Shown here piece by piece: positions 513 to 17,770 of a DNA stretch of 64,000 bases. Positions within the stretch are counted from its first letter, which is position 1. Every line of letters starts with the position of its first letter. The notes beneath the pieces were generated by a model. The model saw nothing but the letters and a program-made list of their open reading frames with translations, did not search any database and was not told the DNA's origin. The translations under genes and the position numbers were made by a program. Origin of the DNA: Xanthomarina gelatinilytica (lineage in GTDB: Bacteria; Bacteroidota; Bacteroidia; Flavobacteriales; Flavobacteriaceae); the NCBI RefSeq assembly GCF_000348685.1, contig NZ_ANLA01000002.1:1-64000 (forward strand), in the 5' to 3' direction.

Positions 513-818
513 CTAAAGTTTTTTTTGCAAACTGCTCCAGCCTCCACCATTAACGGCTTCAATACCATGCTTGTTTAAAACAGAAGCTGCACTGGCAGAA
601 CGCATGCCACTGGCACAACAGGCAATAACAGGTTTGTTCATTTTTTTAATGTCTTCAATTTTATCATTAAGCATTTGCAACGGAATATTCCTAGAACCAG
701 GAATTGCGCCTTGGCTAAATTCAGCTTTGGTTCTTACATCTATAATAATGGCTTTTCTAGATTGAAAATCCTTAATTTTATCAGTTTTGTTACCTGTTAA
801 AAAATCCAATAATCCCAT
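513..818 (-). CDS. Single-domain rhodanese-like protein
   Basis: This 101-residue protein is one rhodanese domain with no signal peptide, so it is cytoplasmic. It shows the IIDVRTKAEF motif near residues 25-34, the GSRNIPL segment and the active-site loop ACCASGMRS, whose second Cys-Ala-Ser-Gly stretch is the persulfide-carrying loop. Such proteins move sulfane sulfur. It converges on the DUF4230 gene and lies divergent to the TetR gene, with an operator-like palindrome 44 bases upstream of its start. Sulfur donor and acceptor cannot be told from sequence. Confidence 0.9.
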   Translation of the reverse strand: MGLLDFLTGNKTDKIKDFQSRKAIIIDVRTKAEFSQGAIPGSRNIPLQMLNDKIEDIKKMNKPVIACCASGMRSASAASVLNKHGIEAVNGGGWSSLQKKL

Positions 819-861
819 AATTTATTTTTTTACAAAGTACTTTAATTTATTTCAAAATAAA

Positions 862-877
862 TGTAACAAGAGTTACA
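862..877. promoter_or_regulatory. Operator-like palindrome upstream of the TetR gene
   Basis: TGTAACAAGAGTTACA is a perfect 6-bp inverted repeat with a 4-base spacer, between the divergent rhodanese and TetR genes. Its core TAACAAGNGTTA is the same as that of the palindrome at 1686-1703 on the other side of the TetR gene. I infer a binding site for the TetR protein, allowing autoregulation. Confidence 0.6.
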
Positions 878-998
878 ACTTATTTTTTAAGTATCTTCAG
901 CCTCTATTTTGAAACATCCTTGATCAAAGCTTATATCGCTAAGTTGTCTGAAAGTAGGGTGTTCCATGTGACTGTTAATAGATAATAGATGTAAGCAC

Positions 999-1565
999 AT
1001 GAAAGAGATTACACGTAAAGACGAAATTATTAAAACGGCAGCCAAACTTTTTAAAGAAAAGGGTTATAGCGCTGTAACCATGAGAGATTTGGCAACAGCC
1101 ATGGGAATAAAAGCTGCAAGTTTGTATAACCATATCAGTTCCAAACAGGAAATCCTGAAAGAGATTATTATTTCTTTGGCTGAAGCATTTACGCAAGGCA
1201 TGGAACAAATTAAGATGTCCAATAATACTTGTGTGGAAAAATTAAACAAAATTGTAGAACTGCACGTGTCCATTACGAGCCAAAATACCTTTGGTATGGC
1301 GTCCCTAAATAACGACTGGATGCATCTGGAAGAACAATTGGATTATTATCTTGAATTACGCTTGAATTATGAAGAAAATTTTAGAAGTATTTTAAAATCT
1401 GGCATACAAAATGGCGAAATTTCAAACAAAAACGTTGAGGTTATGTTGTTTTCCATGTTGTCCACATTACGTTCCTTATATATTTGGATCCCGAACAAAG
1501 ATGCTATCAACGTAAAAAAACTTAGTGCCCAATTAAGCAATGTGCTTATTGAAGGTATTCGCTAG
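999..1565 (+). CDS. TetR/AcrR family regulator, probable paa operon repressor
   Basis: This 188-residue protein has a TetR-type helix-turn-helix at residues about 6-52 (DEIIKTAAKLFKEKGY, then TMRDLATAMGI and SLYNHISSK). The C-terminal two thirds is the helical ligand-binding region and carries no recognisable signature. It lies just upstream of the phenylacetate operon in the same direction. PaaR-type TetR repressors that release DNA on binding phenylacetyl-CoA are known from Thermus and other bacteria, so this role is likely. Matching palindromes flank the gene. The ligand is an inference. Confidence 0.85.
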   Translation: MKEITRKDEIIKTAAKLFKEKGYSAVTMRDLATAMGIKAASLYNHISSKQEILKEIIISLAEAFTQGMEQIKMSNNTCVEKLNKIVELHVSITSQNTFGMASLNNDWMHLEEQLDYYLELRLNYEENFRSILKSGIQNGEISNKNVEVMLFSMLSTLRSLYIWIPNKDAINVKKLSAQLSNVLIEGIR

Positions 1566-1568
1566 TAA

Positions 1569-1585
1569 TACAACCTATGGTTGTA
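1569..1585. other. Short hairpin after the TetR gene
   Basis: TACAACC-TAT-GGTTGTA is a perfect 7-bp inverted repeat right after the TetR stop codon. It has no T-tract, so it is not a standard intrinsic terminator. Confidence 0.4.
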
Positions 1586-1670
1586 ATGTTTATTTTCATA
1601 AAAGACCAACCCATTCCTTAACTTAAAACTAAGGGGCGGAAATAGGCAAAAAAGATTCAAATTTATTTTG

Positions 1671-1678
1671 TAAATTTG
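1671..1678 (+). promoter_or_regulatory. Likely paa operon promoter, -7 element
   Basis: TAAATTTG matches the Bacteroidota -7 consensus TAnnTTTG. I see no clear -33 TTTG at the usual spacing. Transcription would start near 1685, exactly where the operator palindrome begins, leaving a leader of about 125 bases before paaE. Confidence 0.5.
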
Positions 1679-1685
1679 TAAACCT

Positions 1686-1703
1686 AACTAACAAGCGTTA
1701 GTT
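1686..1703. promoter_or_regulatory. PaaR-type operator palindrome at the paa promoter
   Basis: AACTAACAAGCGTTAGTT is a perfect 7-bp inverted repeat with a 4-base spacer. Its centre CTAACAAGCGTTAG differs at one defined position from the Thermus PaaR site as I recall it (CNAACGNNCGTTNG). It lies about 8 bases downstream of the -7 element, where a bound repressor would block transcription. Confidence 0.65.
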
Positions 1704-3020: not shown

Positions 3021-3032
3021 GAGGTGAGTCTT

Positions 3033-3989
3033 ATGGGAGAAGAACAAATAAAGAATTTAGAAGCTCAATTTGAGGCACGTATTGCGCGTGACGAGAAAAT
3101 TGAACCAAAAGATTGGATGCCAGAAAAATATCGTCAAACACATATCAGGCAGATATCCCAGCACGCACATTCTGAAGTGGTTGGAATGCTTCCAGAAGGA
3201 AATTGGATCACCAGAGCACCTTCATTAAGAAGAAAAGTAGCCTTATTGGCTAAAATTCAAGACGAAGCTGGTCATGGTTTGTACCTGTACTCTGCTTGCG
3301 AAACCCTAGGGGTTTCCAGAGACGAACTCTACGAGCAATTACATTCAGGAAAAGCAAAATACTCTTCAATTTTCAATTATCCTACCATCACATGGGCAGA
3401 TATGGGAGCCATTGGTTGGTTGGTAGATGGAGCAGCCATTATCAATCAAGTACCATTGTGCAATACCTCCTATGGTCCATATGCTAGAGCCATGGTTCGT
3501 GTTTGCAAGGAAGAAAGTTTTCACCAACGTCAAGGGTATGAAATCATGCTTAAGTTGGCTAATGGAACACCAGAACAAAAAGCTATGGCACAAGATGCCC
3601 TTAACCGTTGGTGGTGGCCTAGTTTAATGATGTTGGGACCTACTGATGCAGAATCAGTTCATACAGAGCAGTCCATGAAATGGAAATTAAAACGAAAATC
3701 CAATGACGAATTGCGTCAGCAATTTATAGATCAAACGGTTCCTCAAGCAGATATTTTAGGTTTAACCATACCAGATCCAGATTTAAAATGGAATGAAGAA
3801 AAAGGAAGTTATGATTTTGGCGAAATTGATTGGGATGAATTCTGGCAGGTTGTTAAAGGCCATGGACCATGCAATAAAGAACGTATGAAAGCAAGGGTTG
3901 GAGCTTGGGAGCGTGGCGAATGGGTTCGTGATGCAGCCATGGCGTATGCCGAAAAACAACAAAAAAGAAAAGAAAAACAAGTCGTATAA
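3033..3989 (+). CDS. paaA: Phenylacetyl-CoA 1,2-epoxidase catalytic subunit PaaA
   Basis: PaaA is the diiron subunit that converts phenylacetyl-CoA to the ring-1,2-epoxide. The 318-residue protein has the ferritin-like fold with the helix motifs [11 protein letters not shown] and [12 protein letters not shown], whose Glu and His residues are the expected iron ligands. I chose ATG 3033 ([10 protein letters not shown]) over an in-frame GTG at 3024, because known homologues start with this short sequence. The next genes encode the other epoxidase subunits. Confidence 0.95.
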
Positions 3990-4026
3990 TAATTTATGAT
4001 TGAAGATTATCGATTTGAGATTTTAA

Positions 4027-4068
4027 AATCAACAATCAACAGTCAACAATCAGCAATCAACAATAATC
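4027..4068. repeat. Heptamer tandem repeat (AATCAAC) before paaB
   Basis: Five consecutive 7-base units, AATCAAC, AATCAAC, AGTCAAC, AATCAGC and AATCAAC, run from 4027 to 4061. A degenerate unit ends at 4068, right against the paaB ATG at 4069. Two other heptamer arrays in this window sit in the same position relative to a start codon. Confidence 0.75.
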
Positions 4069-4359
4069 ATGTCAACAACAAAAAATTGGCCACTTTGGGA
4101 AGTCTTCGTAAGAAGTAAAAACGGATTAGAACATCGCCATTTTGGAAGTCTACATGCTGCCGATGCTGAAATGGCATTAGAAAACGCAAGGGATGTATAT
4201 ACTAGAAGAAATGAAGGTGTAAGTATTTGGGTTGTAGAGTCCAAACATATTACAGCCTCAAATCCAGAGCATAATGGTGAAATGTTTGAACCAGCTCAAG
4301 ATAAAGTGTATCGTCATCCAACATTTTATGAATTGCCTGATGAGGTAAAATATATGTAA
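4069..4359 (+). CDS. paaB: Phenylacetyl-CoA 1,2-epoxidase subunit PaaB
   Basis: PaaB is the small bridging subunit of the epoxidase complex and has no metal centre. The 96-residue length is normal. WPLWEVFVRSKNGLEHRHFG at the start and the stretch with ENARDVYTRRNEG are typical of the family. It lies between paaA and paaC. Its ATG abuts a heptamer repeat with no recognisable ribosome-binding site. Confidence 0.95.
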   Translation: MSTTKNWPLWEVFVRSKNGLEHRHFGSLHAADAEMALENARDVYTRRNEGVSIWVVESKHITASNPEHNGEMFEPAQDKVYRHPTFYELPDEVKYM

Positions 4360-4360
4360 A

Positions 4361-4380
4361 ATTCCTCAGAAAGCAGGAAT
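4361..4380. other. Short inverted repeat after paaB
   Basis: ATTCCT (4361-4366) and AGGAAT (4375-4380) form a 6-bp inverted repeat at the paaB stop. It is weak and lacks a T-tract. Confidence 0.3.
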
Positions 4381-4459
4381 CTTAAACTTAATGGTTTGTG
4401 TTACATGTGGTATTCCTGTTTTTTTAAAAACTAGGGATAACAAGAATTAAAAATATAAA

Positions 4460-4485
4460 TTGAAGTTTTTCAAGTTAAACTTCAA
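4460..4485. other. Hairpin before paaC
   Basis: TTGAAGTTT and AAACTTCAA form a perfect 9-bp inverted repeat with an 8-base loop, ending 12 bases before the paaC ATG. Three hexamer units TTCAAA, TTCAAG, TTCAAA overlap its end and reach the start codon (4481-4498). Confidence 0.55.
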
Positions 4486-4497
4486 ATTCAAGTTCAA

Positions 4498-5250
4498 ATG
4501 AAAGAAAACTTATATAAATATATCTTGGGTATTGCAGATAATTCCTTAATTCTTGGGCAAAGGTTAGGAGAATTAACTGGTCATGGACCAAGTCTTGAAA
4601 CAGACATAGCTTGCACTAATTTATCATTGGATTTGTTAGGGCAAGTAAGAAGCTACTATCAGTATGCGGCAAAAATATTAGGGAATGGAAAAACTGAAGA
4701 TGATATAGCAATGCTTCGATTGGAACATGAGTATTTAAATGTATTATTGGTGGAACAACCAAATACAGACTTTGCTTATAGTATGGGACGTCAGTTTTTA
4801 TTCGATGTGTATCACTTCCTCTTTTTAAATGAACTTCAAAAAAGTACAGATATTACTTTATCTGCCATTGCCATAAAATCTATAAAAGAAGTAAGCTATC
4901 ACCAACGTTTTTCTTCAGATTGGATAAAACGTTTGGGAGATGGTACAGAAGAAAGCCATCAAAAAATGCAAACAGCTATAGATGATTTATGGACATATAC
5001 AGACGAATTGTTTCGTCAAACAGAAGCAGATATCGCAATGGTTACTGAAGGAGTTGGGGTAGATGTTACTAAACTTAAGGACACATATTATAAAAAAGTA
5101 GCTGAAGTTTTGGAAGAAGCAACCCTAAAAATCCCTGAATCCAAATATTTTCAAAAAGGAGGAAAACACGGAATTCATACAGAACACATGGGTTATTTAT
5201 TGGCAGATCTGCAATATATGCAACGTACCTATCCTAATATGGAATGGTAA
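4498..5250 (+). CDS. paaC: Phenylacetyl-CoA 1,2-epoxidase structural subunit PaaC
   Basis: PaaC is the non-catalytic ferritin-like partner of PaaA and holds the heterotetrameric core together. The 250-residue length fits. RLGELTGHGPSLETDIA near the start and SYHQRFSSDWIKRLGDGTEES are family segments. The C-terminus has the HTEHMGYLLADLQYMQRTYP stretch common to PaaC. It lies between paaB and paaD. Confidence 0.95.
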   Translation: MKENLYKYILGIADNSLILGQRLGELTGHGPSLETDIACTNLSLDLLGQVRSYYQYAAKILGNGKTEDDIAMLRLEHEYLNVLLVEQPNTDFAYSMGRQFLFDVYHFLFLNELQKSTDITLSAIAIKSIKEVSYHQRFSSDWIKRLGDGTEESHQKMQTAIDDLWTYTDELFRQTEADIAMVTEGVGVDVTKLKDTYYKKVAEVLEEATLKIPESKYFQKGGKHGIHTEHMGYLLADLQYMQRTYPNMEW

Positions 5251-5287
5251 GGAATTCATGCACAGACAGAAATCCCTTAAAAAAAAC

Positions 5288-5315
5288 ATCATGCTGAACT
5301 TGTAGAAGCATCTCA
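5288..5315. repeat. Dispersed-repeat remnant before paaD
   Basis: The sequence CATCATGCTGAACTTG followed by an AAGCATCTCATT arm has ATGCT and AGCAT as short pairing arms. It resembles the intergenic repeat TCATGCTGAA...TTCAGCATCTCA common in Flavobacteriia genomes, from memory. Confidence 0.4.
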
Positions 5316-5318
5316 TTA

Positions 5319-5819
5319 ATGGTAACAGAAAAACAACATATCGACCAAATTCTAATTCCAATTCTAGAACAGGTTTCAGATCCTGAAATTCCGGTTCTTT
5401 CAATTATGGATATGGGAGTGGTTCGTTCTGCTGTCATTCAAAACAACGTTGTAAAGGTTCAAATAACACCAACCTATAGTGGCTGTCCAGCTATGGATGT
5501 CATTGGGGACGATATAAAAGTTGCTTTAAAAAAAGCAGGATACCATTCTGAAATTGAATTGATTTTGGCTCCAGCCTGGACAACCGATTGGATTACTCCA
5601 AGAGGTAGAAAAGCTTTGGAAGAATACGGTATTGCAGCTCCTTTAAGTCCAGAGGCTGATAAAGAAGCTCTTTTGGGAAATAAAAAAATAGTGGCATGTC
5701 CACAATGTGGATCTACAAACACAAGATTAGTTAGTCAGTTTGGTTCAACAGCTTGTAAAGCACAGTTTCAATGTGAAGACTGTCAGGAACCTTTTGACTA
5801 TTTTAAATGTTTAAAGTAA
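5319..5819 (+). CDS. paaD: Phenylacetate degradation protein PaaD (MIP18/DUF59 family)
   Basis: PaaD is needed for an active epoxidase and is thought to mature the iron-sulfur or iron sites of the complex. The 166-residue protein has an N-terminal MIP18/DUF59 domain with SDPEIPVLSIMDMGVV at about 20-35. A C-terminal zinc ribbon carries CPQC at about 127 and CEDC near 153. Both parts are expected for PaaD. It follows paaC. Confidence 0.93.
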   Translation: MVTEKQHIDQILIPILEQVSDPEIPVLSIMDMGVVRSAVIQNNVVKVQITPTYSGCPAMDVIGDDIKVALKKAGYHSEIELILAPAWTTDWITPRGRKALEEYGIAAPLSPEADKEALLGNKKIVACPQCGSTNTRLVSQFGSTACKAQFQCEDCQEPFDYFKCLK

Positions 5820-5899: not shown

Positions 5900-6685
5900 A
5901 TGAGCAATAATTCAATACTACTAAAAATTGAAAACAATATAGCGTTCATTACGCTTAACAGACCAGAAGTATTTAATAGTTTCAATCGGGATATGGCTTT
6001 AAGTTTACAAAGCATATTAGATGATTGTGAATCCAATAACACTGTTAGAGCCATTGTTTTAACTGGAAATGGTAAAGCTTTTTGTGCAGGTCAAGATTTA
6101 AAAGAAGTAACATCTCCAGAATTAAACCCAGGATTTAAAAAAATTCTGGAAGAACATTATAATCCCATAATAACTCGAATCAGAAACATTGAAAAACCAA
6201 TCATAGGAGCTATCAATGGTGTGGCAGCAGGAGCTGGAGCAAACATAGCCTTGGCTTGTGATGTGGTTGTTGCTCATGAAAAAGTGAGCTTTATACAAGC
6301 ATTTAGTTTAATAGGACTGATACCGGATAGTGCTGGAACCTTTTTTTTGCCTAGACTCATAGGTTTTCAAAAAGCATCGGCTTTAGCCATGTTGGGAGAT
6401 AAAATCCCTGCAGATGAAGCTGAGCGTTTGAGCATGATTTACAAAGTGATCCCTTTAGAAACTTTCGAAGACGAAGTAAATAAATTGGCTTATAAAATGG
6501 CGAATATGCCAACCAAAGCCTTGGGATTAATCAAAAAAAGTTTAAACCAGTCTCTTACCAATAACCTAGATCAGCAATTGGCTTTAGAATCAAAATATCA
6601 AATAGAGGCAGCAGGAACAGAAGATTATGCCGAAGGTGTCGCAGCTTTTATAGAAAAAAGAAAACCAAATTTTATCGGTAAATAA
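5900..6685 (+). CDS. paaG: Crotonase-family 1,2-epoxyphenylacetyl-CoA isomerase PaaG
   Basis: PaaG isomerises the ring epoxide to oxepin-CoA and is used again in later beta-oxidation. The 261-residue protein has the crotonase oxyanion-hole motifs AFCAGQDL (about 69-76) and NGVAAGAGANIAL. IGLIPDSAGTFFLPRL matches the PaaG type: its Asp sits where hydratases carry a second Glu. That is why I call it PaaG rather than PaaF. It follows paaD and is followed by paaH. Confidence 0.88.
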   Translation: MSNNSILLKIENNIAFITLNRPEVFNSFNRDMALSLQSILDDCESNNTVRAIVLTGNGKAFCAGQDLKEVTSPELNPGFKKILEEHYNPIITRIRNIEKPIIGAINGVAAGAGANIALACDVVVAHEKVSFIQAFSLIGLIPDSAGTFFLPRLIGFQKASALAMLGDKIPADEAERLSMIYKVIPLETFEDEVNKLAYKMANMPTKALGLIKKSLNQSLTNNLDQQLALESKYQIEAAGTEDYAEGVAAFIEKRKPNFIGK

Positions 6686-6728
6686 ATTTATTGTCCAACC
6701 TGCAAGGTTTTTTAAGAAAAGAAAAGAT

Positions 6729-7904
6729 ATGAACATAGGAATAATCGGAAGTGGAACCATGGGAAGTGGCATTGCTCAAGTGGCTGCAACTTCTGGATGC
6801 AAAGTAAAGTTATTCGATACCAACCAAGCAGCTTTGGATAAAGCCAGAGTTGCCTTGGAAAAAATATTGGCAAGATTAGTTGAAAAAGGTAGAATTGTCA
6901 CCTCTGAAAAAGATAGAATCCAAGCAAACATTTCTTATGTAGAAACGTTAAAAGATTTGTCAGATTCCAATCTTACAATAGAAGCCATAGTTGAAAATCT
7001 TGAAATAAAGAAAAACTTGTTTTCAGAACTGGAAAGTTATGTGTCTGATGCTTGTATTATAGCATCAAACACTTCCAGCTTGTCCATAGCGTCCATAGCC
7101 TCTTCATTGCAAAAACCAGAGCGTTGTATTGGAATTCATTTTTTCAATCCTGCGCCATTAATGAAATTGGTGGAGGTGGTTCCTGCTATTCAAACCTCGC
7201 AGGAAGTCCTTGAAACATCAGTGAAAATCATTAAGGATTGGAAAAAAACCGTTGCTGTGGCTAAAGACACACCTGGTTTTATAGTCAACCGGGTGGCCAG
7301 GCCATTTTATGGTGAAGCCTTACGTATTTATGAAGAAGGGATAGCGAGTTTTGAAACTATAGATTCAGCCATGAAAAATATAGGAGGTTTCAGAATGGGA
7401 CCTTTTGAACTTATGGATTTTATTGGAAACGATGTCAATTATACTGTAACTGAAACCGTTTTTACAGCCTTTTATTTCGATCCAAGATATAAACCAGCGT
7501 TCACACAAAAACGCTTTGCAGAAGCTGGATATCTAGGGAGAAAATCAGGTAAAGGCTATTATGATTATGATAAAAACGGACATCTCATTCAGCGTGATTC
7601 TGTCATTCAGCCAGAAAACGAAGAACCTCTTAAACAACTTATATTCAATCGTATTTTGGTCATGCTCATCAACGAAGCAGCCGATGCTTTGTTTTTAAAT
7701 ATCGCATCGGCTGAAGATATTGATAATGCCATGACCAAAGGGGTCAATTACCCAAAAGGACTGTTGGCTTGGGCAGACGAAAAAGGCATGGATTGGTGTG
7801 TTTCAAAAATGGATGAATTATACAATGAATATCATGAAGATAGGTATCGTTGTAGTCCGTTGCTGAGAAAAATGAACAACGAAAATAAAACTTTTTTTAA
7901 ATGA
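6729..7904 (+). CDS. paaH: 3-hydroxyacyl-CoA dehydrogenase PaaH
   Basis: PaaH oxidises 3-hydroxyadipyl-CoA to 3-oxoadipyl-CoA with NAD. The 391-residue protein has the Rossmann motif GSGTMGSG at 7-14, IHFFNPAPLMKLVEVV with the catalytic His, and DTPGFIVNRVARPF at the start of the first C-terminal helical domain. A second, shorter C-terminal domain follows (ILVMLINEAADAL). It is shorter than the roughly 475-residue E. coli PaaH. The stop overlaps the next start by 4 bases. Confidence 0.92.
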   Translation: MNIGIIGSGTMGSGIAQVAATSGCKVKLFDTNQAALDKARVALEKILARLVEKGRIVTSEKDRIQANISYVETLKDLSDSNLTIEAIVENLEIKKNLFSELESYVSDACIIASNTSSLSIASIASSLQKPERCIGIHFFNPAPLMKLVEVVPAIQTSQEVLETSVKIIKDWKKTVAVAKDTPGFIVNRVARPFYGEALRIYEEGIASFETIDSAMKNIGGFRMGPFELMDFIGNDVNYTVTETVFTAFYFDPRYKPAFTQKRFAEAGYLGRKSGKGYYDYDKNGHLIQRDSVIQPENEEPLKQLIFNRILVMLINEAADALFLNIASAEDIDNAMTKGVNYPKGLLAWADEKGMDWCVSKMDELYNEYHEDRYRCSPLLRKMNNENKTFFK

Positions 7905-8308
7905 AAGGCAAACTCATCCCAAACAAAATGTTATCACAAGATGCTTTCAGCCAATGGCTAGGTATCGAAATCCTGGAATGTGAAATAGGACGTTGTAAAG
8001 TTGGTATGACCATTAGAAAAGAGATGCTAAACAGTATGTATAAAGCCCATGGAGGTATTAGCTATGCCTTAGCAGATACAGCTTTCGGGTTTGCTGCAAA
8101 CACACATGGGAAATATGCCGTTTCAATTGAAACAAGTATCAATCACATCGAAGCATTAAACGAAGGCGATTATATTGTGGCAGAATCTGTTATAGAAAAT
8201 GTTAAAAATAAATTAGGTTTCAATATTATTGAAGTTAAAAGAGGTCAGGAGCTTGTAGCTTTATTTAAAGGCGTCGTTTATAGAACAAGTAAAGACTGGC
8301 AAGAATAA
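7901..8308 (+). CDS. paaI: Hotdog-fold acyl-CoA thioesterase PaaI
   Basis: PaaI hydrolyses stray phenylacetyl-CoA and ring-hydroxylated CoA esters, freeing trapped CoA. The 135-residue protein has the hotdog helix MYKAHGGISYALADTAFGFA, where HGG and the downstream Asp are the catalytic region of PaaI. The ATG overlaps the paaH stop (ATGA), so the two are probably translationally coupled. Confidence 0.92.
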   Translation: MKGKLIPNKMLSQDAFSQWLGIEILECEIGRCKVGMTIRKEMLNSMYKAHGGISYALADTAFGFAANTHGKYAVSIETSINHIEALNEGDYIVAESVIENVKNKLGFNIIEVKRGQELVALFKGVVYRTSKDWQE

Positions 8309-8332
8309 AAGCAATCATTAAATAGTGTAATT

Positions 8333-9193
8333 ATGAAATGGCAAGGAAGAAGACAAAGTAAAAATTTAGACGATCGTCGTGGCATGGGAACCAAAGGTAA
8401 ACTAGCTGCAGGTGGAGGCATTGTTGCAGTAATTGTGATACTCTTGCAACTTTTTGGTGGCGAAACAGGTCAGCAAATAGCTCCTATTATAGAACAAATT
8501 AACCAAGGACAAACCACACAACAGGTTCAAGAAAGAGAACTCACAGCCCAAGAAAAGGAAGTAGGGGATTTTGTAGCAACTGTTTTGGCAGACACTGAAG
8601 ACGTATGGAACCAAATTTTTAGAGACAATAATCTAGGAGATTACAAAGAACCAACCATGGTACTTTTTTCTGATGCTGTAAGAAGTGGCTGTGGAAATGC
8701 AAGCTCTGCCTCTGGGCCTTTTTACTGTCCAGCAGATCAAAAATTATATATGGATTTAACTTTTTTCGATGAACTTAAAACACGTTTTGGCGCTCAAGGT
8801 GGCGATTTTGCCATTGCTTACGTTACAGCTCACGAGATTGGACATCATATTCAAACCCTACTTGGAACCTCACAAAAAGTAAGACAATTGCAACAACAAA
8901 CCAATAAAGTTGAAGCCAATAAACTTTCGGTCGCTCAAGAACTTCAAGCTGATTTTTATGCTGGTGTTTGGGCGCATCACAACCAAGAATATCTAGAAGC
9001 TGGAGATATTGACGAAGCACTAAGTGCGGCCAATGCTGTTGGAGACGATGCCATACAAAAGAGAGTTCAAGGAGATGTTGTGCCAGATAGTTTTACTCAT
9101 GGAACATCGCAACAGCGTATGGAGTGGTTTATGAAAGGTTATCATACTGGAGATATAAGATTGGGAGATACGTTTTCGGTAATATTAAACTAA
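8333..9193 (+). CDS. Membrane-anchored neutral zinc metallopeptidase (YpfJ family)
   Basis: This 286-residue protein has a short basic N-terminus, one membrane helix at about 23-42 and a long extracytoplasmic part. HEIGHH at 167-172 is an HExxH zinc motif, and Glu203 in QELQADFYAG is the likely third ligand. CPADQKLYMDLTFF is another family segment. The family is called putative neutral zinc metallopeptidase (YpfJ/KPN_02809). The substrate is unknown. It lies between paaI and paaJ, 24 bases after paaI, which is unusual: no link to phenylacetate is known to me. Confidence 0.88.
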   Translation: MKWQGRRQSKNLDDRRGMGTKGKLAAGGGIVAVIVILLQLFGGETGQQIAPIIEQINQGQTTQQVQERELTAQEKEVGDFVATVLADTEDVWNQIFRDNNLGDYKEPTMVLFSDAVRSGCGNASSASGPFYCPADQKLYMDLTFFDELKTRFGAQGGDFAIAYVTAHEIGHHIQTLLGTSQKVRQLQQQTNKVEANKLSVAQELQADFYAGVWAHHNQEYLEAGDIDEALSAANAVGDDAIQKRVQGDVVPDSFTHGTSQQRMEWFMKGYHTGDIRLGDTFSVILN

Positions 9194-9216
9194 CTAAAAT
9201 CTAAAAATCAACAAAT

Positions 9217-9254
9217 CCTGCAAGGTTTTATCCCGAAGCGTTGGGACTTGTAGG
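9217..9254. repeat. Intergenic hairpin repeat, copy 2
   Basis: CCTGCAAG (9217-9224) pairs with CTTGTAGG (9247-9254), and TCCC (9231-9234) with GGGA (9243-9246). It is nearly the same as the element at 2929-2968, which shows that this is a repeat family and not a chance hairpin. Confidence 0.7.
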
Positions 9255-9309
9255 GTTAAAATAGAATACATTTTAATAAGATTCCCATTTTAGGGGAAAT
9301 ATAAAACTT

Positions 9310-10524
9310 ATGAAAGAAGCATATATCATAGATGGAGTTCGTACTCCAATAGGAAGTTATCAAGGCACATTATCAGCAGTTCGTACAGACGATCTAGCTG
9401 CCTTGGTCATTGAAGAAATAGTAAAAAGAAACCCAAACATCCCCAAAGAAGCCTACAACGATGTGATATTGGGTTGTGCCAATCAAGCTGGGGAAGACAA
9501 TCGGAATGTGGCTAGAATGGCATCACTCTTAGCAGGATTGCCATATACAGTTCCTGGAGAAACAGTTAACAGATTGTGCAGTTCTGGACTTTCCGCTATC
9601 ATACATGCCAATAGAGCCATAAAAGCTGGAGATGGCGATGTGTTTATTTCTGGAGGTGTAGAAAACATGACACGTGGCCCATACGTTATAGCAAAACCTT
9701 CAAAAGGTTTTGGAACTGATGCCAAAATGTACGATTCCAGTTTTGGCTGGCGCTTTGTCAATCCGAAAATGCAAAAAATGTATGGAACAGATGGCATGGG
9801 AAATACTGCTGAAAATCTGGTGGAAAAATATAATATCTCTCGCGAAGATCAAGATAAATTTGCTTATTGGAGCCAAATGAAAGCTTCAAAAGCACAAGAA
9901 AACGGTCGTTTAGCCAAAGAAATTGTAACAGTTGAAATTCCACAAAGAAAAAAAGATCCAATACTGTTTTCAAAAGATGAATTTGTGAAACCAGGAACAA
10001 CTTTAGAGGTTTTGGCCAAATTAAGAGGAGCTTTTAAAGCTGAAGGAGGAAGCGTCACAGCTGGAAATTCTTCAGGATTGAATGATGGAGCTGCTGCAAC
10101 AATCATTGCTTCAGAAGCAGCTGTAAAAAAATACAATTTAAAACCATTGGCAAGAATTGTCAGTTCAGCAGTAGTTGGTGTAGAACCCAGGATTATGGGA
10201 ATTGGACCAGTAGAGGCTTCAAATAAAGCATTGGAAAAAGCAGGGTTGACCATGGACAACATGGACATTATAGAATTAAACGAAGCCTTCGCTGCTCAAG
10301 CATTGGCTTGTACAAGAGCTTGGGGACTTGCCGACAATGATCCAAGATTAAACCCTAATGGTGGTTCCATTGCGATAGGTCATCCTCTTGGTGTAACTGG
10401 TACAAGAATCGCATATTCTGCAGCTTTGGAATTGCATGAACAACAAAAACGTTATGCATTAATTACCATGTGTATTGGTGTTGGCCAAGGCTATGCTGCT
10501 ATAATTGAAAATGTAACTTTATAA
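9310..10524 (+). CDS. paaJ: 3-oxoadipyl-CoA / 3-oxo-5,6-dehydrosuberyl-CoA thiolase PaaJ
   Basis: PaaJ performs the two thiolytic cleavages of the pathway, giving acetyl-CoA and succinyl-CoA. The 404-residue protein has the nucleophile Cys90 in NRLCSSG, the active-site His in GGSIAIGHPLG and the second Cys in CIGVGQG. The N-terminal DGVRTPIGSYQG is the thiolase start. Length and context fit PaaJ; a general acetyl-CoA acetyltransferase could look similar. Confidence 0.9.
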   Translation: MKEAYIIDGVRTPIGSYQGTLSAVRTDDLAALVIEEIVKRNPNIPKEAYNDVILGCANQAGEDNRNVARMASLLAGLPYTVPGETVNRLCSSGLSAIIHANRAIKAGDGDVFISGGVENMTRGPYVIAKPSKGFGTDAKMYDSSFGWRFVNPKMQKMYGTDGMGNTAENLVEKYNISREDQDKFAYWSQMKASKAQENGRLAKEIVTVEIPQRKKDPILFSKDEFVKPGTTLEVLAKLRGAFKAEGGSVTAGNSSGLNDGAAATIIASEAAVKKYNLKPLARIVSSAVVGVEPRIMGIGPVEASNKALEKAGLTMDNMDIIELNEAFAAQALACTRAWGLADNDPRLNPNGGSIAIGHPLGVTGTRIAYSAALELHEQQKRYALITMCIGVGQGYAAIIENVTL

Positions 10525-10525
10525 T

Positions 10526-10556
10526 AGATCTCATCTCGATCATGGTCGAGAGATCT
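10526..10556. repeat. Strong hairpin before paaZ
   Basis: AGATC (10526-10530) pairs with GATCT (10552-10556), and TCTCGA (10534-10539) pairs with TCGAGA (10546-10551). This gives 11 bp with a 3-base bulge and the loop TCATGG. It lies between paaJ and paaZ and includes an ATG at 10542 that I do not take as the paaZ start. Confidence 0.65.
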
Positions 10557-10568
10557 CAATTGAATACT

Positions 10569-13070
10569 ATGAAAAAAATACAGAATTACGTCACAGGGCA
10601 ATGGATGGAAGGTAAAGGACAAGGGGTCCCAATGTTTGATGCTATCACTGGTGAAGTTGTAGGGCTTTCAGATACAGAAGGTTTGGATTTTGCTGAAATT
10701 TTGCATTACGGAAGAACCATAGGAAGTGAAAAATTACGCAAAATGACCTTTCAAGAACGTGGTAACATGCTTAAAAAATTAGCACTGTACCTGGTTAAAA
10801 AGAAAGCCGATTTTTATGAGATAAGTTATAGAACAGGAGCAACAAAAATAGATAGCTGGATTGATATTGAAGGAGGATTTGGGAACTTGTTTGCCAACGC
10901 ATCTTTAAGAAAATTATTTCCTAACCAAGCCTATCACGTAGAAGGAGATCCTATCGATTTATCTCGTGGTGGACGTTTTATGGCACATCATATTATGGTG
11001 CCAAAACGTGGTGTAGCCATACATATCAACGCCTTTAATTTCCCGGTTTGGGGCATGCTTGAAAAATGCGCTGTAAACTGGATGGCAGGTGTGCCAGCAG
11101 TTGTAAAACCAGCAACAAACACCTCGTTTTTAACCGAAGCTGTGGTACGTGAGATTATTACTTCTGGTATTCTTCCTGAAGGCGCCTTACAGTTAATAAC
11201 AGGGTCTGCAAGAACCATTTTGGATACCGTGGAATCCCAGGATGTCGTAACCTTTACAGGTTCGGCAAGCACAGGTAGATTATTAAAATCACATAAGCGT
11301 ATTATCGAGGAATCTGTGCCATTTAATATGGAAGCCGATTCTTTAAATGCATCTGTTTTAGGCGAAGACGCTATTCCTGGAACACCTGAATTCGATTTAT
11401 TCATAAAAGAGGTAAGAAATGAAATGACCGTAAAATGCGGACAAAAATGTACGGCAATCCGTAGAATTATTGTGCCACAGGATCTTGTGGAAGATGTTCA
11501 AATAGCATTAGGAAAAGCCTTGGAAAAAATCACTATAGGAGATCCACGTCTCAAAGAGGTGAGGATGGGAGCCTTGGTGAGTAAAGAACAAGTAACAGAA
11601 GTTAAAGATCGTGTTCAGGAACTGGCTAAGACTGCCAGTATCGTTTATGGCGATTTAGATAAAATTGAAACTATTGGAGCCGATGCTAAAAAAGGCGCAT
11701 TTTTAAGTCCTATTTTGCTTCGTGAAGACCATCCTTTTAAAAATTTATCTGTTCACGAAACAGAAGCATTTGGTCCAGTAAGTACCATCATGCCTTATAA
11801 GAACCTTGACGAAGCCATTACTTTGGCGCAAATGGGGAAAGGCTCCTTGGTATCATCCATCGCAACCAACAATGATAGAATTGCCAAAGAATATGTGATC
11901 AATGCAGCAAGTCATCATGGACGTATTTTAGTTATTAATCGTGATATGGCAAAAGAAAGTACAGGTCATGGTTCCCCATTGCCCAATCTGGTACATGGAG
12001 GTCCTGGTCGTGCTGGAGGAGGAGAAGAAATGGGAGGTATGCGAGGCATCAAACATTATTTACAACGAACAGCCATCCAAGGTACACCAACTACTTTAAC
12101 TGAAATCACGGGAATTTATCAACAAAATGCAACATATAAAGAGGCAGAACAACATCCATTTAAATACCATTGGGAAGACATTCAGCCAGGGATGTCGCTT
12201 AAAACACATAACCGAACTTTTACGGATACAGATATCATCAATTTTGCCAATCTAACCTGGGATCATTTTTATGCTCATACAGATATCACGTCGTTAGACG
12301 GAAGTATTTTCGAAAAAAGGACAGCTCATGGCTATTTTATTATTTCTGCAGCTGCAGGATTGTTTGTTTATCCAAATAAAGGGCCAGTAGCAGCAAATTA
12401 TGGACTGGAAGAGTGTCGTTTCTTACGTCCTTTGTACCATAATGATACTGTTTACGTGCGTTTAACTTGTAAACAAAAGGTGGATAGAGATGTCGCTTCT
12501 GCTGAACACCCAAGTGGTATTGTAAAATGGTATGTAGAGGTATTTGATGCGTTAAACGACGAATTGGTTGCTTTTGCTACCATTCTAACCATGGTACAGA
12601 AAAAACAACAGGTTTTTGTTGAAATGACAGAAGATAAAATCAATGACTGTTTATCAAAATTAACCGATAATGTTAAGCCAAAATGGGGCATTATGACACC
12701 ACAGCATATGATAGAGCATTTGGAATTTACCTATAAAATTGCTTCAGGCGAGATTCAGGATTTTGAAGTGGCTACACCTGAAAAGATTTTAGAAAAAGTA
12801 CATGCCAGTTTGTATAACTATGAAAAATTTCCAAAAAACACCCATTTTCCTCTTTTGGAAAAAGATAAACTAGAGGATTTAAAACATCCTGATTTAGCTA
12901 CAGCCATTGAAAAATTCAAGGCTCAAAGAGAAAAATATTTAGAGTATTTTAAGGATCGTCCAGATGCTAAATTAAACAATATGGTTTTTGGAGAGTTGAA
13001 TAGATACGAGTGGTATTTATTGGAAAGAAAACATTTAAATCATCATTTTGAACAGTTTGGGTTAATATAA
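10569..13070 (+). CDS. paaZ: Bifunctional PaaZ with an extra C-terminal DinB-like (DUF1569) domain
   Basis: PaaZ opens the oxepin-CoA ring with its MaoC hydratase part and oxidises the resulting semialdehyde with its NADP aldehyde dehydrogenase part. The aldehyde dehydrogenase covers residues about 1-520, with catalytic Cys294 in KCGQKCTAIRR and a Glu in the NMEADSLN segment. The MaoC domain spans about 535-675. Residues about 690-833 form an added domain with KWGIMTPQHMIEHLEF and HHFEQFGL, as in DUF1569/DinB proteins. E. coli PaaZ (681 residues) lacks it. I start at ATG 10569 (MKKIQNYVTGQW) because ATG 10542 lies in a hairpin loop. Confidence 0.9.
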   Translation: MKKIQNYVTGQWMEGKGQGVPMFDAITGEVVGLSDTEGLDFAEILHYGRTIGSEKLRKMTFQERGNMLKKLALYLVKKKADFYEISYRTGATKIDSWIDIEGGFGNLFANASLRKLFPNQAYHVEGDPIDLSRGGRFMAHHIMVPKRGVAIHINAFNFPVWGMLEKCAVNWMAGVPAVVKPATNTSFLTEAVVREIITSGILPEGALQLITGSARTILDTVESQDVVTFTGSASTGRLLKSHKRIIEESVPFNMEADSLNASVLGEDAIPGTPEFDLFIKEVRNEMTVKCGQKCTAIRRIIVPQDLVEDVQIALGKALEKITIGDPRLKEVRMGALVSKEQVTEVKDRVQELAKTASIVYGDLDKIETIGADAKKGAFLSPILLREDHPFKNLSVHETEAFGPVSTIMPYKNLDEAITLAQMGKGSLVSSIATNNDRIAKEYVINAASHHGRILVINRDMAKESTGHGSPLPNLVHGGPGRAGGGEEMGGMRGIKHYLQRTAIQGTPTTLTEITGIYQQNATYKEAEQHPFKYHWEDIQPGMSLKTHNRTFTDTDIINFANLTWDHFYAHTDITSLDGSIFEKRTAHGYFIISAAAGLFVYPNKGPVAANYGLEECRFLRPLYHNDTVYVRLTCKQKVDRDVASAEHPSGIVKWYVEVFDALNDELVAFATILTMVQKKQQVFVEMTEDKINDCLSKLTDNVKPKWGIMTPQHMIEHLEFTYKIASGEIQDFEVATPEKILEKVHASLYNYEKFPKNTHFPLLEKDKLEDLKHPDLATAIEKFKAQREKYLEYFKDRPDAKLNNMVFGELNRYEWYLLERKHLNHHFEQFGLI

Positions 13071-14463: not shown

Positions 14464-15060
14464 ATGATTTACAGCTTCAAAGGTTACACACCAGTTGTTC
14501 ACGAATCCAGTTTCGTGCATCCATTGGCTGCCGTAACTGGAAATGTTATTATAGGTAAAAACTGTTACATAGGTCCTGGTGCTGCCATTCGTGGTGACTG
14601 GGGACAAATTATTTTGGAAGATGGCGTAAATGTGCAGGAAAACTGCACAGTACACATGTTTCCAGGAAAATCCATCACACTTAAAGAAAGTGCACATGTT
14701 GGTCATGGAGCTATTATCCATGGAGCAAATCTGGGTAAGAATTGTTTAATAGGAATGAATTCCGTAATTATGGATGATGCCGAAATTGGCGACGAAAGTA
14801 TTGTTGGAGCCATGGCCTTTGTGAAAGCCGAAACCATGATCCCAAAACGAAGTTTGGTGGTTGGCAATCCAGCAAAAGTAATTAAAGAAGTTTCAAATGA
14901 CATGATAGCATGGAAAACCAAAGGCACACAATTATATCAACAATTACCAGCAGATTGCCATGAGACTCTAAAAGAAGTAGAGCCTTTAAGAGAGGTTCCG
15001 GAAAATATGAAAATGCAAGAATCATTTTATGATACTTTGCGAGATTTTATGAAGAAATAA
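14464..15060 (+). CDS. paaY: Hexapeptide-repeat protein PaaY (gamma carbonic anhydrase-like)
   Basis: PaaY is a left-handed beta-helix protein of the gamma carbonic anhydrase fold, reported to act as a thioesterase that spares CoA in phenylacetate breakdown. The 198-residue protein has repeated hexapeptides (VIIGKNCYIGPGAAIRGDWG, then NLGKNCLIGMNSVI). His residues at VHMFPG, HVGHGAIIHG are the metal ligands. It is in the same direction as the paa genes, beyond the broken S23 gene. Confidence 0.88.
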   Translation: MIYSFKGYTPVVHESSFVHPLAAVTGNVIIGKNCYIGPGAAIRGDWGQIILEDGVNVQENCTVHMFPGKSITLKESAHVGHGAIIHGANLGKNCLIGMNSVIMDDAEIGDESIVGAMAFVKAETMIPKRSLVVGNPAKVIKEVSNDMIAWKTKGTQLYQQLPADCHETLKEVEPLREVPENMKMQESFYDTLRDFMKK

Positions 15061-15063
15061 TAA

Positions 15064-15096
15064 TGTCATTTTGAAGATAGCGAGCTCACAATGACA
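15064..15096. repeat. TGTCATT/AATGACA inverted repeat
   Basis: TGTCATT (15064-15070) and AATGACA (15090-15096) enclose 19 bases. The ends match those of the longer element at 5821-5886. Confidence 0.55.
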
Positions 15097-15109
15097 GAAT
15101 AAAATATGT

Positions 15110-16435
15110 ATGTCCAAGTTTGAATTAAAAATGCCCAAAATGGGCGAGAGTATTACAGAAGGAACTATCATTAACTGGTTGGTCTCCGAAGGCGATTCAT
15201 TTGAAGAAGGCGATATCATCCTAGAGGTTGCAACCGATAAAGTGGATAATGAGGTACCAGCTCCAGCATCTGGAACCTTGGTAAAAACCATGTATCAAGC
15301 CAAAGATGTAGTGCCTGTTGGAGAAGTGATTGCAATGTTGGAAGTTTCAGATGAAGTAAAACCTTCAAAAAAACAGCCTGCCCTAGAGAGTCCCGATAAC
15401 TATAGGGACGAAGAACGCCTTAAAGTAAAAAAAGAAATTAAAAAGAAACCTGCTGTCATTCCAAGTGCAGCCAAGGATTCTCATGCAAAGTCCTTTTCGG
15501 AATCGAACAAAAACATCTTTTTTTCACCCTTAGTTATAAAAATTGCTAAAGAACATCATATCAGTTTTGAAGAGTTGGCCCGAATTCCTGCAACAGGACA
15601 TGAGGGCAGATTGCGTAAAAGCGATGTGTTTAATTATATAGAAGATGGGAGGCCATACAAATTTGCACAAACTGTAACCCAAGATCCTACGGCTTATAGA
15701 ATTCCACAGTTAACTTTCGATAAAGGCAAAGGGAAAGTTGTGGAAATGGATAGAATGCGCCAAATGATAGCAGATCATATGGTGTATTCCAAACACACGT
15801 CGCCACATGTAACAGCTTATGTGGAAGCAGATTTAACCAATATGGTCAATTGGCGAAACACCAATAAAAAAGCATTTCAGGAAACATATGGCGAACGCCT
15901 AACCTTTACACCTTTATTTGTTGAAGCAATTGCCAAAGCCGTAAAAGATTTTCCCAACATCAATGCTTCGGTCGATGGCAATAACATCATTGTAAAGGAA
16001 GATATAAACATAGGTATGGCCACGGCCTTGCCAAGTGGCAATTTAATTGTTCCAGTGGTAAAAAACGCAGATACCAAAAATTTAAAGGAGCTTGCAGAAA
16101 CTGTCAATAAACTTGCCGAAAAAGCTAGGGAAAATAAATTGGGAGCCGATGATATTAAAGGAAGCACCTTTACCATTTCCAATGTAGGAACCTTTGGAAG
16201 TGTGATGGGAACACCCATAATCAATCAACCAGAAGTGGCTATACTTGCTTTAGGAATTATTAAAAAACGACCAGAAGTGATAGAAACCGAAAAAGGTGAT
16301 GAATTAGCCATTAGAAGTATGATGTACTTATCCTTGTCTTTTGACCATAGAGTGGTAGACGGCTTTTTGGGAGGAAGCTTTGTGCGTCGTGTAGCCGATT
16401 ATTTTGAACAGTTTGACATCAATAGAAAAATATAA
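15110..16435 (+). CDS. Dihydrolipoamide acyltransferase E2, probable branched-chain 2-oxoacid dehydrogenase
   Basis: E2 transfers the acyl group from the decarboxylase to CoA. The 441-residue protein has a lipoyl domain at 1-78, with the lipoylated Lys44 in EVATDKVDNE. An E3-binding domain lies at about 138-180 (SPLVIKIAKEH, IPATGHEGRLRKSDV). The catalytic domain ends with SFDHRVVDG. The ilvE and fused E1 genes downstream point to branched-chain acids. The linker at residues about 94-132 contains two pieces of intergenic-repeat sequence read in frame. Confidence 0.9.
   Translation: MSKFELKMPKMGESITEGTIINWLVSEGDSFEEGDIILEVATDKVDNEVPAPASGTLVKTMYQAKDVVPVGEVIAMLEVSDEVKPSKKQPALESPDNYRDEERLKVKKEIKKKPAVIPSAAKDSHAKSFSESNKNIFFSPLVIKIAKEHHISFEELARIPATGHEGRLRKSDVFNYIEDGRPYKFAQTVTQDPTAYRIPQLTFDKGKGKVVEMDRMRQMIADHMVYSKHTSPHVTAYVEADLTNMVNWRNTNKKAFQETYGERLTFTPLFVEAIAKAVKDFPNINASVDGNNIIVKEDINIGMATALPSGNLIVPVVKNADTKNLKELAETVNKLAEKARENKLGADDIKGSTFTISNVGTFGSVMGTPIINQPEVAILALGIIKKRPEVIETEKGDELAIRSMMYLSLSFDHRVVDGFLGGSFVRRVADYFEQFDINRKI
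15390..15409. repeat. Palindromic repeat fragment inside the E2 linker
   Basis: GTCCCGATAACTATAGGGAC is a near-palindrome of the TCCCGATA...TATCGGGA type found between genes in Flavobacteriia. Here it is translated in frame within the flexible linker of E2. Confidence 0.5.
15454..15482. repeat. TGTCATTCC repeat arm inside the E2 linker
   Basis: It begins TGTCATTCCAAGT and ends GGATTCTC. The intergenic arm at 16528-16555 begins with the same 13 bases and ends GGAATCTC. It lies between the lipoyl and E3-binding domains and does not break the frame. Confidence 0.55.
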
Positions 16436-16527
16436 CTTATTTCTGTAATACCAGGAATCTTTTATAACGAGAGAAAGAACATAAGAATATCAATAATCAA
16501 AGTATAAGTTCTGATTTAATAATTTTT

Positions 16528-16555
16528 TGTCATTCCAAGTTTGTCTAGGAATCTC
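16528..16555. repeat. TGTCATTCC repeat arm before ilvE
   Basis: The arm reads TGTCATTCCAAGT... to GGAATCTC. It is one half of the TGTCATT...AATGACA repeat family seen at 5821 and 15064. Confidence 0.5.
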
Positions 16556-16577
16556 AAATCAAAAAAATATAAAAAAA

Positions 16578-17645: not shown

Positions 17646-17770
17646 GGCTTTCCCCTAAAGGGTCAGGCTTTCGGCAGTCGCTCTTTTCAAGGAGCTCCAA
17701 CAATGCCTCAATCCTTAAAGCAAAGTAACTGAATCAAATTAGTGTAAAAACATCAATAAAAACACAACCC
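17646..17770. other. Gap between ilvE and the E1 gene
   Basis: The first 60 bases (GGCTTTCCCCTAAAGG and following, GC-richer) loosely match the leader repeat at 1705. The rest is AT-rich and leads into the E1 ATG. I see no promoter match here. Confidence 0.3.

What the first reader, a model, noticed from the sequence alone, without database searches (positions are those of the whole stretch)
862..1703. Two matching palindromes flank the TetR gene and predict the paa regulon
TGTAACAAGAGTTACA (862-877) and AACTAACAAGCGTTAGTT (1686-1703) share TAACAAGNGTTA, including the unpaired spacer bases. The second starts about 8 bases after a TAAATTTG -7 element, and it differs at one defined position from the Thermus PaaR site as I recall it (CNAACGNNCGTTNG). 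A TetR gene next to a paa operon with such sites suggests a PaaR-like repressor of the operon and of itself, and perhaps of the rhodanese, in Flavobacteriia. The palindromes are seen; binding is inferred.
Basis: partly seen in the sequence, partly recalled or inferred. Interest (0 to 1): 0.7.

Follow-up and report, generated by a model that had tools for sequence, protein, structure and literature searches.

The report
One PaaR operator, one sulfur-regulon site
Two look-alike DNA palindromes beside a regulator gene in a Flavobacteriaceae bacterium belong to two different control circuits: one is the conserved switch of the phenylacetate-degradation genes, and the other follows a sulfur-handling gene and most likely answers to another regulator.

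Summary
The shared 12-mer is no commoner in this genome than its reversed control; conservation decides.

Site 2 (1686-1703) is very probably the operator of a PaaR-type repressor. Of 199 family genomes 70 have this TetR, and all 70 carry the site 17-150 nt before paaE. It stays with paaE in four genomes whose TetR lies apart; 19 of 27 examined loci outside the family keep it. Its form, CTAAC-RNNY-GTTAG just after a TANNTTTG element, is the Thermus PaaR consensus with two spacer-edge positions relaxed.

Site 1 (862-877) is something else. It lies 49-59 nt from the rhodanese start, but 25-2639 nt from TetR; it occurs without PaaR and recurs around a Crp/Fnr gene beside sulfur genes (25 of 30 loci). 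Its flanking pair is G..C, PaaR's C..G. Autoregulation (1 of 70) and rhodanese control by PaaR are not supported.

In passing: most of these clusters lack PaaK and carry a 2-oxoacid dehydrogenase. Binding and ligands are inferred.

The parts
1686..1703 (.). Site 2: AACTAACAAGCGTTAGTT, PaaR operator of the paa operon
   Evidence: only exact CTAACN4GTTAG in the genome; present in 70 of 70 PaaR genomes; RNNY spacer in 151 of 151 oriented sites
1671..1678 (+). TAAATTTG, -7 element of the paaE promoter (Bacteroidota promoter type, recalled)
   Evidence: at this distance from the operator in 135 paaE sites T, T, T, G are the commonest base in 82, 98, 97 and 92%
999..1565 (+). TetR-family regulator, PaaR-like
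   Evidence: Pfam TetR_N and TetR_C_24; ortholog (E <= 1e-45) in 70 of 199 family genomes, all 70 with PaaA
1812..2885 (+). paaE, first gene after the operator
   Evidence: TIGR02160 421.1 bits, cut-off 420.8
3024..5819 (+). paaA, paaB, paaC, paaD
   Evidence: TIGR02156, TIGR02157, TIGR02158, TIGR02159, each over its cut-off
5900..13070 (+). further paa genes: hydratase-, dehydrogenase-, thioesterase- and thiolase-like ORFs (names by inspection) and paaZ (10542-13070)
   Evidence: paaZ TIGR02278 890.7 bits, cut-off 562.8; other ORFs, not scanned
14464..19858 (+). PaaY-like gene, 2-oxoacid dehydrogenase E2 (15110-16435), branched-chain aminotransferase-like gene (16527-17645), fused E1 (17771-19858)
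   Evidence: an E2-like ORF (by inspection) directly follows a PaaR-type site in two relatives, G010 and G079
862..877 (.). Site 1: TGTAACAAGAGTTACA, probable Crp/Fnr-type site of the rhodanese promoter
   Evidence: 49-59 nt (centre) from the rhodanese ATG in the 34 of 98 upstreams that have the exact motif; same motif at a Crp/Fnr sulfur gene cluster
833..839 (-). TACTTTG, probable -7 element of the rhodanese promoter; its last G is 36.5 nt from the centre of site 1
   Evidence: in the 34 loci T, T, T, G at offsets +40 to +43 in 34, 34, 31 and 30
513..818 (-). single-domain rhodanese gene, divergent from TetR
   Evidence: Pfam PF00581 59.5 bits

Best explanation
Two independent control points share one neighbourhood. 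(1) The TetR protein (999-1565) is a PaaR-type repressor. Its dimer binds AACTAAC-RNNY-GTTAGTT at 1686-1703, directly downstream of the -7 element of the paaE promoter, and blocks transcription of the paa operon. A CoA thioester of the pathway, by analogy phenylacetyl-CoA, would release it. In this family the repressor gene normally has no such site of its own. (2) The palindrome at 862-877 belongs to the divergent rhodanese gene. Its fixed distance from the -7 element suits an activator bound near -41.5. The best candidate is the Crp/Fnr protein encoded beside sulfur genes at G000:C21, whose only cysteines (77, 83, 84) are invariant and could sense sulfane sulfur. Shown: gene identities, site conservation, positions, co-occurrence. 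Inferred: binding, direction of control, ligands.
For: PaaR: ACTAACN4GTTAGT in 70 of 70 PaaR genomes and in 13 of 129 others; 17-150 nt before paaE in 70 of 70. In G010, G054, G074 and G174 the paa operon lies apart from TetR and the site is with paaE; in G010 further sites precede paaZ and an E2-like gene. Spacer RNNY in 151 of 151. 19 of 27 examined loci outside the family, at 32-50% protein identity, keep CTAACN4GTTAG, 18 if L294, where it is not next to regulator or paaE start, is dropped; five of these sites fit CNAACGNNCGTTNG exactly. Site 1: distance to rhodanese 49-59 nt in 34 loci, to TetR 25-2639 nt in the 25 of them that contain TetR; exact site in 9 of 13 rhodanese loci from PaaR-less genomes; 25 of 30 Crp/Fnr loci carry GTAACN4GTTAC, 42 sites in 108,831 bases against 7 in the 3.05-Mb genome, and none of the 30 carries CTAACN4GTTAG. 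Flanking pair C..G in 131 of 131 palindromes before paaE and G..C in 35 of 35 before rhodanese.
Against: No binding data. The relatives are not independent samples. Only one paa operon without PaaR has its upstream intact (G027); it lacks the site, but that is one case. Eight of 138 distinct paaE upstreams, all from distant loci with TetR at 32-39% identity, have no such palindrome within 160 nt, and 8 of the 27 loci outside the family have no exact site. Site 1 is not universal: exact in 34 of 98 rhodanese upstreams, and 9 of 17 rhodanese loci from PaaR genomes have nothing like it. Five of 30 Crp/Fnr loci lack the motif within 1.5 kb, and only the 30 best of 157 Crp/Fnr genomes were examined. 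Of the seven GTAACN4GTTAC places in the genome, one (C15) lies inside a long ORF and those on C4 and C9 have no sulfur gene that I could recognise. Orthology to the Thermus protein was not tested.
Confidence: 0.86

Rival explanations
1. One reading: PaaR binds both palindromes and controls the paa operon, itself and the rhodanese.
For: The two 12-mers agree in 11 of 12 positions; site 1 also lies upstream of TetR, as a GTAAC-type site does in 10 of 70 family genomes. Cross-binding at low affinity is not excluded.
Against: Site 1 tracks the rhodanese, not TetR; it is present without PaaR; the TetR loci of G010, G054 and G074, away from paa, have no TAACN4GTTA at all; the flanking base pair differs without exception between the paaE and rhodanese palindromes.
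Confidence: 0.08
2. Site 2 works as RNA: a hairpin, terminator or attenuator in the paaE leader.
For: A 9-bp stem is predicted, the leader folding better than shuffles (z -2.06); a terminator-like pattern is scored at 1684-1705, one of 2 found against 0.2 expected. At the second pair of the arms 3 of 33 distinct 18-mers have C-G instead of A-T, a double change.
Against: The outermost pair is broken in 20 of 33 distinct 18-mers and the second in 5 of 33, with one G-T; the inner pairs were fixed by the search pattern and say nothing. The T-rich tail is interrupted by CCC. The spacer obeys an RNNY dyad rule, and the site recurs before TetR, paaZ and an E2-like gene at other distances.
Confidence: 0.03
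3. Site 1 is bound by another regulator than the C21 Crp/Fnr protein, for example a second Crp/Fnr paralog.
For: The first look found 5 candidates for Crp/Fnr relatives in the own genome; the motif form is generic for the superfamily (recalled).
Against: The motif lies beside this gene and its neighbours in 25 of 30 loci, in L250, L263, L265 and L273 directly upstream of the gene itself.
Confidence: 0.15

Closest known systems
PaaR of Thermus thermophilus HB8 (TTHA0973)
   Same: TetR family, linked to paa genes, operator consensus CNAACGNNCGTTNG (PMC6651687, passages); DNA binding relieved by phenylacetyl-CoA (review PMC9493321, passages and a title in its reference list)
   Different: The window site has A, not G, at position 6. 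In Flavobacteriaceae the operator follows the regulator gene, so the regulator is normally outside that control; in Thermus TTHA0973 is gene 1 of the operon (table seen). Ligand untested here
PaaR of Burkholderia cenocepacia (BCAL0210)
   Same: TetR-type repressor of paa promoters acting through an inverted repeat (PMC2770484 and PMC9493321, passages)
   Different: 15-bp repeat ACCGACCGGTCGGTT between -10 and -35: different sequence and place
PaaR recorded next to paa clusters in Flavobacteriia (PMC13186573)
   Same: The survey already notes a strong association of full Flavobacteriia pathways with PaaY-PaaR (passages)
   Different: Its main text holds no occurrence of operator, binding site or palindrom; its counts concern genomes with a phenylacetate-CoA ligase, which most genomes here lack at the threshold used
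Sulfide/persulfide regulators FisR, BigR, CstR, SqrR
   Same: FisR and BigR operons hold persulfide dioxygenase, SQR and TauE-type genes (PMC7315123, passages); CstR, SqrR and FisR sense through cysteines (PMC9774590, passages)
   Different: In the passages seen none of them is a Crp/Fnr protein; the protein here has cNMP_binding and HTH_Crp_2 domains

Membership tests
PaaR (TetR-type paa repressor) | TetR-family DNA-binding domain with a ligand domain | tested here: met
   TetR_N 53.7 bits, TetR_C_24 51.4 bits
PaaR (TetR-type paa repressor) | Linked to and co-occurring with paa genes | tested here: met
   70 of 70 PaaR genomes have PaaA; 3 of 73 PaaA genomes lack PaaR
PaaR (TetR-type paa repressor) | Palindromic operator of the Thermus type in paa promoters | tested here: met
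   CTAACRNNYGTTAG in 151 of 151 oriented CTAACN4GTTAG sites; exact Thermus form in 5 distant loci; the window site is off by one position
PaaR (TetR-type paa repressor) | Operator upstream of its own gene (autoregulation; seen in Thermus, not demanded of every member) | tested here: not met
   1 of 70 family genomes; 12 of the 27 examined loci outside the family do have it
PaaR (TetR-type paa repressor) | Sequence orthology to Thermus or Burkholderia PaaR | not tested
   Their sequences were not fetched; best PDB match is 3vpr, a TetR regulator, E 3.6e-20 (recalled as Thermus PfmR)
PaaR (TetR-type paa repressor) | Phenylacetyl-CoA as effector; repression of paa | not testable with these tools
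   needs biochemistry and genetics
Crp/Fnr family (candidate binder of site 1) | cNMP-binding fold and Crp helix-turn-helix | tested here: met
   PF00027 38 bits, PF13545 38.4 bits, both over cut-off
Crp/Fnr family (candidate binder of site 1) | A common dyad at its own locus and at the rhodanese promoter | tested here: met
   GTAACN4GTTAC in 25 of 30 Crp/Fnr loci and 34 of 98 rhodanese upstreams
Crp/Fnr family (candidate binder of site 1) | The protein binds the dyad and answers to a sulfur signal | not testable with these tools
   C77, C83 and C84 invariant in 31 of 31 aligned rows from 30 genomes; suggestive only

The most novel reading that the evidence does not exclude
A cysteine-based Crp/Fnr activator, with relatives in 157 of 199 family genomes, senses sulfane sulfur through C77/C83/C84 and activates a persulfide-detoxification regulon (rhodaneses, a persulfide dioxygenase-like protein, TauE, efflux genes) from GTAACN4GTTAC sites at about -41.5. 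Its sites differ from the PaaR operator in one discriminating base pair, which lets the two systems sit 800 bp apart in this genome without cross-talk.
Probability: 0.5. Interest if true: 0.62.

Novelty: new member of a known kind. Interest (0 to 1): 0.5.

Why it matters
It gives Bacteroidota a testable operator for PaaR, usable to map paa regulons in other genomes, and suggests that a recognition sequence close to the Thermus one is kept across phyla. It separates a second motif that points to a Crp/Fnr-controlled sulfur regulon in a group where my paper searches found no such regulator. It is also a caution: two palindromes alike in 11 of 12 positions, 800 bp apart and flanking a regulator gene, probably belong to different circuits.

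Tried and rejected
Autoregulation: a CTAAC-type site lies within 250 nt upstream of TetR in 1 of 70 family genomes (G087); GTAAC-type sites lie there in 10 of 70. 69 of the 70 loci reach the full 250 nt, one (G062) only 43 nt. I read the ten as sites of the rhodanese; I did not check all ten one by one for a divergent rhodanese.

Genome-wide enrichment of the motif as evidence: rejected, the pooled count is below the reversed control.

RNA hairpin or terminator: folded and scanned, judged less likely from the broken outer pairs, although three double changes are compatible with it.

PaaR-less paa operons as negative control: three genomes (G027, G089, G112), none with the site, but in G089 and G112 the contig ends inside paaE, so only G027 counts.

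The 13 PaaR-less genomes with ACTAACN4GTTAGT: taken as chance. Sites of 8 of them are shown, and in 7 of these 8 no spacer fits RNNY (the exception is G072); five genomes are not shown. L202 (G072) lies among genes that look unrelated to paa, L208 (G099) has no paa match, L209 (G145) has a 35% PaaE-like match beside its site that I did not pursue. L207 is a second site of the PaaR genome G096, beside unrelated genes.

The site at C4:25219 lies upstream of a 128-aa ORF of unknown function; not resolved.

Literature: searches gave no paper; two searches listed none that from title and abstract start is about a Crp/Fnr sulfide regulator in Bacteroidota; searches listed none about a flavobacterial PaaR operator. 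Only openly licensed PMC papers were searched, and lists are capped.

Thresholds: I counted as PaaR the 70 genomes with E <= 1e-45; the other 13 of the 83 matches have E of 2.1e-31 or worse and were dropped. Of 69 matching genomes in the class search, 39 came without a locus and were not examined; three of the rest are family genomes, leaving 27. Of the 86 genomes with a rhodanese match the 30 best were tabulated.

Full report
What is there. The window starts at the beginning of contig C2 of genome G000 (47 contigs, 3.05 Mb), whose nearest named relatives are Flavobacteriaceae. Reading rightwards: a rhodanese gene on the minus strand (513-818), the palindrome 862-877, a TetR gene (999-1565), the palindrome 1686-1703, then paaE, paaA, paaB, paaC, paaD and further paa genes to paaZ. 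Both palindromes and the shared TAACAAGNGTTA are as described. By count they are not unusual in the genome, although each exact dyad is expected only 0.04 times in the window.

Site 2 is conserved with the regulator. A protein search found the TetR at E <= 1e-45 in 70 of 199 family genomes; 13 weaker matches, at 2.1e-31 or worse, were dropped. A DNA search of the same genomes for ACTAACN4GTTAGT gave 83 genomes: 70 of 70 with PaaR and 13 of 129 without (Fisher 8e-41, ignoring kinship). In all 70 the site lies 17-150 nt before paaE, median 31; likewise in all 79 genome-contig loci in which paaE was found, of 80. The two sets overlap.

Site 2 belongs to the paa operon rather than to the TetR gene. 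In G054, G074 and G010 the TetR gene lies far from paa, its fetched locus has no TAACN4GTTA, and the paa operon has the site just before paaE; in G174 the site is beside paaE, 3.8 kb from TetR. G010 has further copies before paaZ and before an ORF that reads like a 2-oxoacid dehydrogenase E2; G079 has one before a similar ORF. All 70 PaaR genomes have PaaA; the three PaaA genomes without PaaR lack the site, but only one (G027) has the region intact.

Form of the operator. Across 151 distinct oriented sites the spacer is RNNY without exception; the one non-RNNY site comes from the PaaR-less genome G145. In the 135 paaE sites a TANNTTTG element ends ten bases before CTAAC, counted from its last G to the C, with T, T, T, G commonest in 82, 98, 97 and 92%. 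The operator would therefore cover the transcription start: a repressor position (inferred). In a wider search of 395 class genomes I examined 27 loci outside the family: 19 keep CTAACN4GTTAG, one of them away from regulator and paaE start; 8 do not. In 12 of the 27 the site precedes TetR, which mostly leads the operon there. Five TetR-side sites fit the Thermus consensus CNAACGNNCGTTNG exactly (consensus from PMC6651687). So autoregulation seems to go with lineages where TetR leads the operon; in this family the operator sits behind TetR and autoregulation is the exception (1 of 70).

Site 1 is something else. In 34 of 98 distinct rhodanese upstreams an exact GTAACN4GTTAC is present, its centre always 49-59 nt from the rhodanese ATG; in the 25 of these loci that contain TetR its distance to the TetR start ranges from 25 to 2639 nt. 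Where the rhodanese is 2.3 kb from TetR (L036, L037), the site is with the rhodanese. Of 13 rhodanese loci in genomes without PaaR, 9 carry it exactly. With the flanking base left open, TAACN4GTTA palindromes before paaE are C..G in 131 of 131 and before rhodanese G..C in 35 of 35. Against universality: 9 of 17 rhodanese loci in PaaR genomes have nothing like it, and loci with less than 58% rhodanese identity seldom do (10 of 54, against 24 of 44 above that).

Whose site is it? The own genome has seven GTAACN4GTTAC places. Three fall in one 7-kb stretch of C21: before a TolC-like gene (by inspection) next to a protein weakly like SQR, before a second rhodanese, and before a metallo-beta-lactamase/rhodanese protein that I read as persulfide dioxygenase-like (NCBIfam matches far below cut-off), in a cluster with TauE and a Crp/Fnr gene. 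I had written down the Crp/Fnr guess from the dyad before that look-up. Taking the 30 best of 157 genomes with that Crp/Fnr protein, the own genome included, 25 carry the motif within 1.5 kb, 14 at least twice, 42 sites in 108,831 bases, and none carries CTAACN4GTTAG. The protein's only cysteines, 77, 83 and 84, are invariant in all 31 aligned rows, one genome appearing twice. At rhodanese promoters the site is in register with the -7 element: T, T, T, G at +40 to +43 in 34, 34, 31 and 30 of 34 loci; a strict TAn(n)TTTG ending 36.5 nt from the centre was the first match in 14 of 34. If transcription starts about five bases after the -7 element, the centre lies near -41.5, an activator position (inferred).

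What is known. TetR-type PaaR is established in Thermus, Burkholderia and Corynebacterium (review passages), with phenylacetyl-CoA as effector in Thermus. A 2026 survey records PaaR with full Flavobacteriia pathways (passages). So site 2 makes this a new member of a known kind, with an operator I did not find in print. For a Crp/Fnr sulfide regulator in Bacteroidota, searches listed nothing; the papers looked into name FisR, BigR, CstR and SqrR instead.

A side finding. The paa cluster here runs on into a PaaY-like gene (241.8 bits, below the curated 319.6), a 2-oxoacid dehydrogenase E2, an aminotransferase and a fused E1. That E1 (E <= 1e-200) occurs in 70 of 199 genomes, 68 of them among the 73 with PaaA, and in 62 of 68 within 12-29 kb on the same contig. 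A phenylacetate-CoA ligase match at E <= 1e-100 is found in only 4 of 199 genomes, all four with PaaA, none over the curated cut-off, and not in this genome, whose best match has 166.8 bits against a cut-off of 646.3. Together with the PaaR-type sites before E2-like ORFs in two genomes this suggests that phenylacetyl-CoA is made from phenylpyruvate, so that the operon serves phenylalanine rather than phenylacetate. The substrate is inferred.

Noticed in passing
window 14464-19858: The paa cluster has no PaaK at the threshold used but carries 2-oxoacid dehydrogenase E2, an aminotransferase and a fused E1; E1 co-occurs with PaaA in 68 of 73 genomes, a PaaK-like ligase (E <= 1e-100) in only 4 of 199. 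Possible phenylpyruvate-to-phenylacetyl-CoA route.
   Followed up: partly
L211 (G000:C21:18000-36000): Sulfur cluster: Crp/Fnr, TauE, metallo-beta-lactamase/rhodanese, second rhodanese, cytochrome-like, thioredoxin-like, SQR-like and TolC/HlyD-like genes with three GTAACN4GTTAC sites.
   Followed up: partly
L306:6302-8071 and L186:3735-5495: A gene with a biopterin-dependent aromatic amino acid hydroxylase domain (scanned in L306 only; L186 by resemblance) lies divergent from paaE or TetR in some relatives, another link of paa to phenylalanine.
   Followed up: partly
window 8333-9193: An ORF with a zinc-metallopeptidase-like HExxH motif (by inspection) sits inside the paa operon between the thioesterase-like and thiolase-like genes.
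   Followed up: no
L186 (G087): The only one of 70 family genomes with PaaR-type sites on both sides of TetR, so possibly autoregulated.
   Followed up: no
L021 (G195) and L090: Two tandem PaaR-type operators 50 bp apart before paaE.
   Followed up: no
window 1569-1585: Terminator-like stem just after the TetR stop, suggesting that TetR and paaE are separate transcripts here.
   Followed up: no
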